64,000 nt of DNA. It comes from Gammaproteobacteria bacterium. Its GTDB lineage: Bacteria; Pseudomonadota; Gammaproteobacteria; Pseudomonadales; Azotimanducaceae. Both the position numbers and the translations under genes were made by a program. The first letter of the stretch is position 1; every line of letters begins with the position of its first letter. Positions 26,032 through 28,246 of the stretch are shown in pieces. The notes under the pieces are model-generated. The model searched no databases and had not been told where the DNA came from. It saw only the letters and a program-made list of their open reading frames with translations. Where the stretch lies: contig JAPOVK010000032.1 of NCBI GenBank assembly GCA_026708185.1, positions 1-64,000 of the forward strand, written 5' to 3'.

Positions 26032-26056
26032 GTTGGGCCGCGTTGTGAGACATGAC

Positions 26057-26947
26057 GTGACCGAGGATCTCTACAGGATCGGGGCCGTAGCCAAGCGGAC
26101 GGGCATCTCTCCGGAGTGCCTGCGCGCGTGGGAGCGCCGCTACGGCCTCGAACCGGCGGAGCGGGCCGGCAAGACGCGCTTCTACGATGGCGCCCAGATC
26201 GAGCGGCTGACGGTCATCAAGGCGTTGCTCGACCAAGGCCATCCGATCAGCCAAGTCATCCATTTGCCGGGCGAAGCGTTGTCGCGCCGGCTGTCTCCCG
26301 GACGGGCATCGACGCTGGCGACATCGGCAACGCCGAAGGTGGCCTTGGTCGGCGCGGCGCTGGTCCGGGCCCACCGAGATGCCGAGCATGCGCGACGCGA
26401 CCGCGCGCGGTTCGACGTGGTTGCCGAGTGGGCGGGCGTTGCCGACCTGTACCGCGATGCCGTCCCCTCGCAATTGGACTGCGTCGTGGTCTACCTGCCT
26501 TCCCTTGACGCGGAACAGATTGAAAAAGTTAGATATTTTCTACAGGGACCGCACATCGTCGTCGCCTTCAAGTACGCCACGGCAGCGGATCTGGCGGCGT
26601 GCCGGGACGGTGGCTACCCGATGCTCCGCTGGCCCGCGGACTGGGACCGGCTCGAGGCGCTGGTGGTGGCCGGTGGAGTCCGCGAGATCGACGACACGGC
26701 GCGACGCTTCAGCGACGAGGAGTTGCTGCATGTTTCGCAGGCCGCTTCGAGAGCCGCGTGTGATTGTCCGCGTCACCTGGCAGTGCTCATTGGCGAATTG
26801 AACGACTACGCCTCTCATGCCGCCCGTTGCCGCGGCGACGACCGTCACGATGTGATTGGGCGCGAGGTCGAGGTGGCGCGTGCGCACCTCGAGCGAGCCC
26901 TAGAGGATCAGATCGAGGAGCACGGCCTCCTCGTGACCGCGAATTGA
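26057..26947 (+). CDS. MerR-family regulator, LitR/CarH-like, B12-binding motif missing
   Basis: A 296-residue protein. Residues 1-75 form a MerR winged-helix domain of the MlrA/CarA/LitR type: YRIGAVAKRTGISPECLRAW, ERRYGLEPAERAG, TRFYDGAQIERL. The C-terminal part has the alternating strand/helix pattern of a cobalamin-binding-like fold (DCVVVYLPSLDAEQIEKVRY, HIVVAFKYATAADLAA), but the E-x3-H and D-x-H-x2-G motifs that hold adenosylcobalamin are absent, so any sensing must be indirect. The start is GTG at 26057 (alternative GTG at 26045). It lies just upstream of the small-RNA gene on the same strand, with a shared TGTACAGT motif. Confidence 0.75.
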   Translation: MTEDLYRIGAVAKRTGISPECLRAWERRYGLEPAERAGKTRFYDGAQIERLTVIKALLDQGHPISQVIHLPGEALSRRLSPGRASTLATSATPKVALVGAALVRAHRDAEHARRDRARFDVVAEWAGVADLYRDAVPSQLDCVVVYLPSLDAEQIEKVRYFLQGPHIVVAFKYATAADLAACRDGGYPMLRWPADWDRLEALVVAGGVREIDDTARRFSDEELLHVSQAASRAACDCPRHLAVLIGELNDYASHAARCRGDDRHDVIGREVEVARAHLERALEDQIEEHGLLVTAN

Positions 26948-26969
26948 ACAAATATTAGACAAAAAGTTG

Positions 26970-26997
26970 TTGACAACCCCGAATTGTCCTGTACAGT
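26970..26997 (+). promoter_or_regulatory. Sigma-70 promoter of the small RNA gene
   Basis: A perfect -35 TTGACA (26970-26975), a 16-base spacer and a -10 TACAGT (26992-26997). Transcription would start near 27003-27005. The -10 is embedded in TGTACAGT, the motif also found upstream of the neighbouring LitR-like gene, and the -35 lies in the palindrome TTGTTGACAA. Local sequence is AT-rich compared with surroundings. Confidence 0.75.
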
Positions 26998-27002
26998 ATC
27001 TC

Positions 27003-27150
27003 TACAAACAGCAAAGGGCGACGTAAGGAAGCGTCGCCGAACCGGTATTCGGGCGTGACCACAGCAACTTTCTCCTCCCATCGACCCTTCCCCCTACGGG
27101 GTTGAGTTGCTGCCAGCGGTTGTCTGACCGCTGGCACGCCCATTTTTCTT
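27003..27150 (+). ncRNA. Candidate structured small RNA with exposed anti-Shine-Dalgarno segment
   Basis: A transcript of about 148 bases with its own promoter and no reading frame. Helices seen directly: a 5' hairpin GGCGACG/CGTCGCC (27017-27038) with loop TAAGGAAG; an outer helix GGGCGTG/CACGCCC (27051-27057 with 27135-27141); helix A CAGCAACT/AGTTGCTG (27062-27069 with 27105-27112), extended by CGACCC/GGGTTG (27082-27087 with 27099-27104, one G-U); helix B CCAGCGGT/ACCGCTGG (27113-27120 with 27127-27134). Outer, A and B abut as a three-way junction. A 12-base bulge on helix A exposes TTCTCCTCCCAT, complementary to Shine-Dalgarno sequences, as in some alphaproteobacterial anti-SD RNAs. The ATTTTTCTT tract follows the outer helix directly. 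No known family assigned. Confidence 0.75.
27112..27150 (+). terminator. Rho-independent terminator of the small RNA
   Basis: GCCAGCGGT/ACCGCTGGC hairpin (27112-27120 with 27127-27135, loop TGTCTG), then CACGCCC, then ATTTTTCTT at 27142-27150. The T-tract is seven bases from this hairpin but immediately follows the outer helix formed by CACGCCC with upstream GGGCGTG. Confidence 0.7.
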
Positions 27151-27220
27151 CCGACCGCACAGCGATCCTCGACGGCACGGGGCGTCATCGAACGGGTGCG
27201 ATGCCGGTAAGCCTACGCGC

Positions 27221-28246
27221 CTACTCCGTGAGCAACCGCAGCGCGGACTCCGCCCGTTGGTGGATGCCGAGCTTGTACTTCTCGAGGTCGAAGTCCCGGT
27301 TCTTGCCCATCGCGCCCACCAGGTAGCGCTTGTAGACACCCTGCGTGATGGCGCCGAGGCGCCAATGCGAGAAGGCGCGGTAGTAGTTGATGCGGCTCAA
27401 GCTCCGTCCGGTTCGGCGTTCGTAGACTTCCGCGATGTGATCGCGGTCGGGAAAGCCGCCGACGCCCACTGGGCTGCCAACGGCACCGCTTTCGCCCGGC
27501 AGCACCCAGTTGTTGAGCAGGTAGCCGACGTCGGCCAGCGGATCGCCCAGGGTGCACAGTTCCCAGTCTAAGAGCGCCACCATGCGGCCGTCTCGGATCA
27601 TCATGTTGCCGATGCGGTAGTCGCCGTGGACGATGCCGGCACCGATCTGCTCCGGCATGTCCTCGTGGAGCAGCCGCTCGCTTTCCTCCATCTCGGGAAT
27701 CTCGTGGGTCTTCGTCGCCTTCCACTGGGCGGTCCAGCGTTTCAGTTGCCGGGCGATGTAGCCCTCCTTGCGCGCGAGCGTGCCAAGACCGACGTCGTCC
27801 GGGTCGATGAGGTGCAACGTGGCCAGCACGTCGATGATGTGCTCACCGGCGGAGGCGCGTTCGGCGATCGGGATTGTCGCGGAGACCTCGGGTTCGTGGG
27901 GCACGGTGCCTTCCACGAACTTCATGAGAAAGAACGGAGCGCCGTTCACCTCGGGATCTTCGCATAGGCCGTAGGTACGCGGTACGGGCACGTCGGTGTC
28001 CGCCAAAGCGGAGATGATGCGGTGCTCCCGGCCCATGTCGTGCGCGCTTTCGAGAACGTGTCCGAGTGGAGGTCGCCGGAGCACATAGGCCTCGCCCGCC
28101 GCGTCCGTGAACTTGTAAGTGAGGTTGGAGTGGCCGCCTGCGATCAGGGTGAACGTGAGCGGGGGCTGCAACCCGTCGATACGGTCCGCCACCCACGCGG
28201 TGACCTTGGGCGCGTCGATGCCTTCCACTGCGTCTGCCGCTGCCAT
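27221..28246 (-). CDS. Aminoglycoside phosphotransferase-family kinase (ACAD10-like)
   Basis: A 341-residue kinase-fold protein. Glycine-rich loop IAGGHSNLTYKFTD, catalytic loop VHGDYRIGNMMI (HGD-x4-N) and the metal-binding Asp in ALLDWELCTLGDPLADVGY are clear. This branch is usually called phosphotransferase family or ACAD10/11-like and is common near acyl-CoA metabolism genes; in ACAD10/11 the domain phosphorylates 4-hydroxyacyl-CoA. True aminoglycoside resistance is unlikely. The ATG at 28246 has a near-perfect AAGGAG site. Stand-alone; convergent with the small-RNA gene. Confidence 0.88.
   Translation of the reverse strand: MAAADAVEGIDAPKVTAWVADRIDGLQPPLTFTLIAGGHSNLTYKFTDAAGEAYVLRRPPLGHVLESAHDMGREHRIISALADTDVPVPRTYGLCEDPEVNGAPFFLMKFVEGTVPHEPEVSATIPIAERASAGEHIIDVLATLHLIDPDDVGLGTLARKEGYIARQLKRWTAQWKATKTHEIPEMEESERLLHEDMPEQIGAGIVHGDYRIGNMMIRDGRMVALLDWELCTLGDPLADVGYLLNNWVLPGESGAVGSPVGVGGFPDRDHIAEVYERRTGRSLSRINYYRAFSHWRLGAITQGVYKRYLVGAMGKNRDFDLEKYKLGIHQRAESALRLLTE

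What the first reader, a model, noticed from the sequence alone, without database searches (positions are those of the whole stretch)
26970..27150. Unannotated small RNA gene with anti-Shine-Dalgarno segment and an exact three-way junction
TTGACA-16-TACAGT is followed by about 148 bases without a reading frame. Helices GGGCGTG/CACGCCC, CAGCAACT/AGTTGCTG and CCAGCGGT/ACCGCTGG abut with only ACCA unpaired at the junction. CTCCTCCC lies in a 12-base bulge where it could pair with ribosome-binding sites, and ATTTTTCTT follows the closing helix. A separate 5' hairpin presents TAAGGAAG in its loop. The fit of promoter, fold and terminator is hard to get by chance. Anti-SD RNAs with CCUCC motifs are known in alphaproteobacteria; I know no match for this fold.
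Basis: partly seen in the sequence, partly recalled or inferred. Interest (0 to 1): 0.85.

Follow-up and report, generated by a model that had tools for sequence, protein, structure and literature searches.

The report
Conserved small RNA beside MerR regulator
A small RNA gene, next to the gene of a repressor that probably switches it, is kept in about half of the sampled genomes of one bacterial family and carries C-rich stretches that could block the start sites of messenger RNAs.

Summary
Homologues occur in 91 of 200 sampled genomes of the window's family; 88 of 92 copies directly follow the same MerR-type gene. The three-helix junction is supported by covariation: 16 of 22 pairs change on both sides among 48 distinct copies, 0 of 500 shuffles. 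A model built without the window finds it at 27049-27152, E=1.3e-10. The loop carries two C-rich words in 47 of 48 copies, typically GUCCUCCC and GUCCUUCCCCC. Rfam has no match. The promoters carry TGTACnGTACA (32 of 50) and 11-bp TnWACA repeats (31 of 50), the operator form reported for CarH; the MerR protein has a CarH-like HTH but no detected B12 domain. In 24 genomes, 16 of 21 strict operator sites are this RNA's promoter. The window's TAAGGAAG hairpin is a lineage-specific insertion. Best reading: a MerR-repressed, trans-acting RNA that masks ribosome-binding sites. Transcript, targets and signal are not shown; two target scans and one candidate check found no conserved target. Light is possible: related MerR genes precede photolyase genes.

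The parts
26054..26947 (+). MerR-type regulator gene (297 aa; HTH, receiver/Rossmann-like middle domain, helical C-terminus); probable repressor of the RNA
   Evidence: Pfam MerR_1 E=9.5e-17; HTH closest to CarH among PDB sequences; NCBIfam CarH and MlrA far below cut-off; directly upstream of the RNA in 88 of 92 copies; AlphaFold model pLDDT 85.2, pTM 0.48, best Foldseek hit CarH E=3.8e-4 with TM 0.24. The GTG start at 26054 is inferred.
26970..26997 (+). sigma-70-like promoter TTGACA-16-TACAGT
   Evidence: -35 TTGACA or TTGACT in 43 and spacer 16 in 37 of 50 distinct homologous upstream regions
26984..27006 (+). operator-like half-sites TTGTCC (26984-26989), TGTACA (26990-26995) and TCTACA (27001-27006); the last two 11 bp apart; over the -10 and the start
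   Evidence: sequence; in homologous promoters TGTACnGTACA strict in 32 of 50 and TnWACA-n5-TnWACA in 31 of 50, shuffled means 0.0 and 0.08
27003..27150 (+). small RNA gene; start inferred from the -10, end from the T-run
   Evidence: inferred; no transcript data
27017..27038 (+). 5' hairpin with TAAGGAAG loop, lineage-specific insertion
   Evidence: only in L003 (own genome) and L004 (G007) among the copies read
27049..27152 (+). conserved RNA core matched by the covariance model built without the window
   Evidence: R1, 45.8 bits, E=1.3e-10
27051..27057 (+). P1 5' strand (pairs with 27135-27141)
27062..27069 (+). P2 5' strand (pairs with 27105-27112)
27072..27079 (+). C-rich motif 1, CTCCTCCC, anti-SD-like, 0.96 unpaired
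   Evidence: CCTCC in the loop of 43 of 48 distinct copies
27085..27094 (+). C-rich motif 2, CCCTTCCCCC, 0.63 unpaired in the window
   Evidence: CTTCCCC in the loop of 45 of 48 distinct copies
27105..27112 (+). P2 3' strand
27113..27134 (+). P3 hairpin CCAGCGGT...ACCGCTGG
27135..27150 (+). P1 3' strand and T-run, presumed intrinsic terminator
   Evidence: a T-rich tail follows P1 in most aligned copies, weakly in L005, L006 and L013
27224..28243 (-). APH-fold kinase gene, convergent neighbour, not part of the system
   Evidence: Pfam APH E=5.9e-53, scored on the longer frame to 28378; other genera have other genes at this side

Best explanation
The region encodes a small non-coding RNA of about 150 nt. 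Its terminator stem (P1) closes a three-way junction; P2 holds open a loop (31-42 nt in the family) with two C-rich motifs, and P3 lies next to P1. The MerR protein encoded just upstream binds TnTACA-type half-sites over the RNA's promoter and its own promoter and represses both (inferred from site placement and from the published repressor action of the related LitR/CarH proteins). When an unknown signal lifts repression, the RNA accumulates and its C-rich motifs pair with G-rich or Shine-Dalgarno segments of target mRNAs and lower their translation. Shown here: conserved RNA gene, covarying fold, conserved C-rich loop, conserved operator-bearing promoter, tight linkage to the MerR gene. Inferred: transcription, repression by MerR, trans pairing with ribosome-binding sites, the signal.
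For: Covariation: 15 of 22 pairs change on both sides in 16 sequences that exclude the window, 43 cells against 12.7 shuffled; 16 of 22 in 48 distinct copies, 143 cells against 35.1, 0/500 shuffles, slid structures drop to 32-50% paired (that alignment was fitted to the model). The model finds the window at E=1.3e-10. Family search: 91 of 200 genomes, 18 of 37 genera. MerR directly upstream on the same strand in 88 of 92 copies, gap 60-272, median 108.5; the other four have no MerR hit on the same contig at E<=1e-25, and in three of them a MerR gene or its end cut by a contig end explains it (G014, G485, G529); G566 is unresolved. G012 lacks both. Loop: two non-overlapping C-rich words in 47 of 48 distinct copies; CCTCC median unpaired 0.91, n 43. 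Promoter and operator. In 24 RNA-bearing genomes TGTACWGTACA occurs at 21 places, 16 of them this RNA's promoter (compared by hand). Repressor action and TGTACA half-sites of class II LitR (PMC9758184, passages); 11-bp TnnACA repeats of CarH (PMC9304148, passages).
Against: No transcript evidence. Target scans with two 9-mer complements before ATG gave no recurrent target apart from pairs of close relatives and paralogues; hits exceeded the reversed-pattern control only modestly (66 against 41; 49 against 29, 7 of the 49 being the RNA gene's own antisense; my sums), as any SD-like word would. A 14-nt perfect match at a response-regulator start in G455 was not kept in ten orthologues read (ten more could not be read by that script). 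Motif 2 is only half open in predicted ensembles (median 0.53, n 45). The loop as a whole (0.77 identity) is not better conserved than P2 (0.80). In one search one of five measures (further pair types) does not beat the shuffles (111/500). None of the five own-genus genomes searched, the window's included, has a strict TGTACWGTACA site; they have variants.
Confidence: 0.6

Rival explanations
1. The RNA titrates a protein (for example a pyrimidine-binding cold-shock-type protein) through its C-rich motifs, as RsmY-type RNAs titrate RsmA, and does not pair with mRNAs.
For: Two similar short motifs in one loop; no conserved mRNA target found. In genus g8 the same MerR position is followed by a different intergenic stretch with GGA motifs, the word that RsmA/CsrA decoys use (the decoy motif is recalled).
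Against: The motifs are close complements of SD-like and G-rich words, as in the mRNA-pairing RNAs NfeR1 and sX13. The GGA excess in g8 beats shuffles in 2 of 4 sequences only.
Confidence: 0.2
2. It is only the 3' end of the merR transcript: a decorated terminator or 3'-UTR with no function in trans.
For: It follows merR on the same strand at 60-272 bases in 88 of 92 copies and ends in a stem with a T-run.
Against: A conserved sigma-70-like promoter with operator words lies between merR and the core in most of 50 distinct copies, and the C-rich loop is not needed by a terminator. An RNA cut from merR mRNA could still act in trans, so this rival and the main reading can overlap.
Confidence: 0.12
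3. The RNA is a cis-regulatory leader or riboswitch for the downstream gene.
For: A structured RNA with a T-run, as in attenuators.
Against: The downstream gene is convergent in the window and is not the same in other genera, so no gene in cis is shared.
Confidence: 0.03
4. As an addition to the main reading: the signal is light, the MerR protein being a LitR/CarH-type photoregulator or the partner of one.
For: Operator form as in LitR/CarH; related MerR genes lie directly before DNA photolyase genes in L044, L048, L050 and in two genus-g44 loci, L258 and L259.
Against: Pfam and NCBIfam show no B12-binding or other sensor domain in the MerR proteins tested; the fold match to CarH is weak overall (TM 0.24). 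Genes beside the RNA locus where I looked are an AMP-binding enzyme and an APH kinase (Pfam on L245, L247, L249; others by eye), not known light genes.
Confidence: 0.35

Closest known systems
alpha-r14 RNAs (SmelA075, NfeR1) of Rhizobiales
   Same: Unpaired CCUCC-type anti-SD motifs presented by stems that vary in sequence; NfeR1 reported to occlude a ribosome-binding site (PMC3927594 and PMC10746234, passages).
   Different: Those have three hairpins, each with the identical CCUCCUCCC loop; here one three-way junction with a single large loop holding two different C-rich motifs, in a gammaproteobacterial family, tied to a MerR gene. No Rfam match.
sX13 of Xanthomonas
   Same: C-rich loops; G-rich motifs near start codons of targets (PMC3771888, abstract and passages).
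   Different: Three stems with three apical C-rich loops; no three-way junction and no linked MerR gene in the passages seen.
LitR/CarH regulators (class II LitR of Pseudomonas, CarH of Thermus and Myxococcus)
   Same: MerR-type HTH closest to CarH; TnTACA-type half-sites and 11-bp repeats over the promoter; half-sites also before merR itself.
   Different: No B12-binding domain detected. The RNA promoter is nearly the only strict site in the genomes searched outside the own genus, whereas the targets named in the passages seen are protein genes.

Membership tests
Any Rfam family | Covariance-model score above the gathering threshold | tested here: not met
   Whole window: 0 matches; 26800-27300 up to E=1: 0. 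12 relatives up to E=0.5: 3 matches, all in L040 and none at its RNA
alpha-r14 / NfeR1 RNAs | Three hairpins, each with an identical CCUCCUCCC loop | tested here: not met
   Three-way junction with one loop holding two different motifs
alpha-r14 / NfeR1 RNAs | Unpaired anti-SD motif | tested here: met
   CTCCTCCC 0.96 unpaired in the window; CCTCC in the loop of 43 of 48 copies, median 0.91 unpaired; prediction only
sX13-type C-rich RNAs | Three stems with apical C-rich loops | tested here: not met
Trans-acting anti-SD RNAs (functional class) | Represses mRNAs by pairing at ribosome-binding sites | tested here: inconclusive
   Target scans without a recurrent target
Trans-acting anti-SD RNAs (functional class) | Independent, non-coding transcription unit | tested here: inconclusive
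   Conserved promoter and T-run; longest closed ORF in the core varies from 0 to 33 aa in 48 copies; no transcript data
Hfq-dependent RNAs | Binding to Hfq | not testable with these tools
   needs pull-down
LitR/CarH regulators (for the MerR protein) | MerR-type HTH with sites made of 11-bp TnnACA repeats or TGTACA half-sites | tested here: met
   HTH match to CarH chain 5c8d E=2.3e-11; repeats in 31 of 50 RNA promoters at the 11-bp period. Binding itself not tested.
LitR/CarH regulators, class I (B12 photoreceptors) | B12-binding domains | tested here: not met
   Pfam gives no B12-binding family in 7 MerR proteins; NCBIfam CarH 39.2 bits against a cut-off of 400

The most novel reading that the evidence does not exclude
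A new RNA-output module: a LitR/CarH-like MerR repressor whose near-only regulon is itself and one structured, anti-SD RNA, so that one signal is turned straight into translational control; in sister genera the same regulator position is coupled to other outputs (a more C-rich RNA, a GGA-rich stretch, a photolyase gene, tiny hydrophobic peptides).
Probability: 0.35. Interest if true: 0.75.

Novelty: new variant of a known kind. Interest (0 to 1): 0.6.

Why it matters
It is an RNA family without an Rfam match, with strong covariation, in a bacterial family whose named relatives seen here are all MAGs (L034-L046). It would link a CarH/LitR-type transcription switch directly to a C-rich, mRNA-masking RNA; four full-text searches that joined MerR/LitR/CarH or blue light with RNA terms listed no such system (listings only, 12 of 60 shown; most subscription papers are not in the library). 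Because the strict operator is so rare in these genomes, regulator and RNA form a compact pair whose signal and targets can be tested in a transplanted reporter.

Tried and rejected
Known RNA family: Rfam at gathering level on the window and at E<=1 on the locus, and at E<=0.5 on 12 relatives, gave nothing at the RNA. Coding gene: the longest closed ORF inside the core varies from 0 to 33 aa among 48 copies without a shared length. Plasmid-borne copies: no match in the plasmid collection.

Wider spread: in 390 genomes of the order 8 have hits, 7 of them in the own family (own genome included); the eighth (G198, 26.1 bits) lies antisense inside a hemA-like gene (read by eye) and is judged chance. 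In 274 genomes of the class, the own hit and two at E about 0.009, judged chance and not inspected. So the RNA as modelled is seen in one family; these searches use strict filters that lose weak members, as G465 shows (43.6 bits with filters off).

Targets: GGAAGGACA (24 genomes) and GGGAGGACT (20 genomes), each followed within 0-9 bases by ATG; 63 ORFs of at least 35 aa were compared with each other. Recurrences: three enoyl-CoA-hydratase-like paralogues, one pair of 88% identical proteins in two species of the own genus, a 36-aa match between two proteins, and two pairs in G427 and G445 (same genus) that look like spurious frames. Seven of the 49 GGGAGGACT hits are the RNA gene's own antisense (compared by hand). 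A response-regulator start in G455 (Response_reg + GerE; GacA/UvrY-like by eye) is perfectly complementary over 14 nt, but ten orthologous starts were not; eight have z between -1.6 and 0.1, and the two best (-3.0, -2.7) lack the word. Ten of the 21 loci given to that script gave no start, so this is a weak test. Starts of merR and the AMP-binding enzyme gave duplex energies without a control and no clear case.

A first count of motifs per loop (48 of 48) counted overlapping words twice; it was redone without overlap (47 of 48) and the first is not used.

Regulator fold: a second structural library was not available.

Full report
Setting. Named relatives found with the neighbouring protein and carrying the RNA are MAGs titled Gammaproteobacteria, Pseudomonadales or Proteobacteria; the taxon of the window itself is inferred from these. 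Upstream of the finding lies a MerR-type gene (26054-26947, +), downstream and convergent an APH-fold kinase gene.

The observation. The stretch 27003-27155 folds to -63.1 kcal/mol, 4.62 standard deviations below dinucleotide shuffles, 0 of 200 as good. CTCCTCCC is open (0.96 unpaired). The promoter is the only one that the scan finds in 26900-27260; the terminator scan, limited to loops of 3-8, does not see the junction-type end.

Conservation. A DNA search of 58 relatives found the region only in the own genome and in G007, at 97%. Protein searches show the MerR gene in 15 of 16 genus genomes. Behind it, in 14 of these 15, lies an element with GGCGYG...CRCGCC closing strands and two C-rich motifs; in the fifteenth, G014, the contig ends and the RNA is found at the start of another contig. 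The sixteenth genome, G012, lacks both at the thresholds used. Of the 20 loci from named records read, twelve of the thirteen L034-L046 (all but L044) show the element, L049 and L051 show a divergent form, and L044, L047, L048, L050, L052 and L056 do not. Some of these named loci are the same contigs as G genomes (for example L043 and G005), so they are not all independent; identical rows were counted once in the pair counts.

Covariation. I aligned 16 sequences without the window, wrote the three helices by hand and counted pairs: 93.9% of cells paired, 15 of 22 pairs with changes on both sides, 43 such cells against 12.7 in shuffles, 0 of 500 for four of the five measures and 111 of 500 for the fifth (further pair types); sliding the partner by 1-3 columns drops pairing to 30-51%. 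All 8 pairs of P2 change on both sides. The model R1 built from it finds the window at 45.8 bits, E=1.3e-10, in 198 kb. With 54 copies (48 distinct) aligned to the model: 96.7% paired, 16 of 22 pairs, 143 cells against 35.1, 0 of 500 on all five measures; this alignment is fitted to the structure and leans towards it. Relatedness inflates the shuffle comparison; the slid controls keep relatedness.

Spread. R1 hits 91 of 200 family genomes (92 copies, 18 of 37 genera), one per genome except G491 with two. In the order 8 of 390, one of them judged chance; in the class 3 of 274, two of them borderline. 88 of 92 copies have the MerR gene directly upstream on the same strand at 60-272 bases. The four exceptions have no MerR hit on their contig; G014, G485 and G529 are explained by contig ends, G566 is unresolved. 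In the same 200 genomes 126 have a MerR hit at E<=1e-25. I read the DNA behind 18 MerR genes without an adjacent R1 hit: G465 has a full copy with filters off (43.6 bits), G433 and G025 (g11) and G329 (g45) have weak, more C-rich relatives (19.7-20.4 bits, E about 2e-4 in 13 kb) in the right place and strand, G501 and G568 end with the contig, four g8 genomes have a GGA-rich stretch, three g44 genomes a photolyase gene, and G463, G506, G035, G422 and the second copy of G030 nothing recognised as this RNA.

Anatomy of the family. Consensus: t-aGGCGtG, variable P2, loop, P2, P3, CaCGCC, T-run. The commonest loop reads GCAGUCCUCCCUUUCAAGUGUCCUUCCCCCAGAAG; in the own genus it differs, for example GGUCCUCCCUGUAAUGCUUGUGUCCUUCCCCCC. 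Identity is 0.95 in P1, 0.80 in P2, 0.75 in P3, 0.77 in the loop, so the loop as a whole is not better conserved than P2, but 12 of its columns reach 90% and cluster at the C-rich motifs. CCTCC is in the loop of 43, CTTCCCC in 45, and two non-overlapping C-rich words in 47 of 48 copies. The window belongs to a divergent branch: its loop differs and it has a 5' hairpin with TAAGGAAG, which could pair with its own CUUCC (inference).

Promoter and regulator. In 50 distinct upstream regions my simple finder places -35 TTGACA or TTGACT in 43 and a spacer of 16 in 37; its placement in L046, L114, L015 and L016 looks wrong by eye and in L013 doubtful. TGTACnGTACA occurs strictly in 32 of 50, a looser form in 47; TnWACA pairs occur in 31 at the 11-bp period, while gaps of 9, 13 and 14 give 1, 1 and 4 and the other gaps from 0 to 15 none; single-base shuffles give 0.0 and 0.08. 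This is the repeat form described for CarH (PMC9304148, passages) and uses the TGTACA half-site of class II LitR, a repressor relieved by a light-activated LOV protein in Pseudomonas mendocina (PMC9758184, passages). All 28 merR upstream regions examined (L015 and L043 are one contig; L044 has no RNA) carry at least one such half-site; I estimate about a quarter by chance, no control was run. In 24 RNA-bearing genomes the strict site TGTACWGTACA occurs at 21 places in 18 genomes: 16 are this RNA's promoter, 4 lie inside long frames, and 1 (G427) lies between two longer frames, within a 94-aa frame only. The five own-genus genomes and G034 have no strict site, so near-exclusive control is suggested for other genera only.

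The MerR protein has an HTH closest to CarH and below-cut-off matches to CarH and MlrA, no B12 family in Pfam, and a model (pLDDT 85.2, pTM 0.48) with a receiver- or Rossmann-like middle domain and a helical end. CarH is the top structural hit at E=3.8e-4, but with TM 0.24, so the likeness is by parts. Related MerR genes directly precede DNA photolyase genes in L044, L048, L050, L258 and L259 (Pfam) and, by eye, L265. Light is therefore a lead and not a result. In Vibrio cholerae a MerR-like gene in a predicted operon with phr is up-regulated under blue light (PMC5241685, passages).

Function. The two C-rich motifs resemble those of NfeR1 and sX13, which repress mRNAs at or near ribosome-binding sites (PMC10746234, PMC3771888, passages). 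My target scans do not establish any target. My odds: 0.97 for a real RNA gene, about 0.85 for control by the adjacent MerR protein, 0.6 for pairing with ribosome-binding sites, 0.35 for light.

Novelty. No Rfam family matches (for relatives), and four full-text searches listed no LitR/CarH/MerR-linked RNA of this kind (titles and starts of abstracts seen, 12 of 60 papers listed); two more on C-rich and anti-SD RNAs listed the known comparators. The library lacks most subscription papers. I class it as a new variant of a known kind: a new RNA family with its own fold and an apparently dedicated regulator.

Noticed in passing
L254, L255, L256, L257 (genus g8, behind the MerR gene): A TGTACAGTACA word in L254-L256, and in all four a stretch of 227-267 nt with 6-12 GGA motifs and long predicted stems (no fold control), perhaps an RsmA/CsrA-decoy-like RNA in the place of the anti-SD RNA. 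The GGA count beats single-base shuffles in 2 of 4.
   Followed up: partly
L261, L262, L263, L049, L051: A divergent relative with loops such as CUCUCCCCCUCCCCCC inside the same GGCGUG/CACGCC-type closing helix, right behind the MerR gene.
   Followed up: partly
L044, L048, L050, L258, L259 (L265 by eye): Related MerR genes directly followed by DNA photolyase genes (Pfam) and no RNA of this kind seen.
   Followed up: partly
L264 (G506, g15), L266 (G035, g21): The MerR gene is followed by very short frames for hydrophobic peptides (MSNVIHTPISVAISIVVSVGFVTTLVPLL and MSQFLKNPIVFGSSTVAWVGLLTTAMTVIA, translated by eye), possible alternative outputs.
   Followed up: no
window 27017-27038: On the minus strand the 5' hairpin scores as a terminator-like site followed by CTTTGCTGTT.
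   Followed up: no
G455:C8:222407-222420 (L316): The start region of a response-regulator gene (Response_reg + GerE) is perfectly complementary over 14 nt to the RNA of the same genome; not kept in 10 orthologues read.
   Followed up: yes
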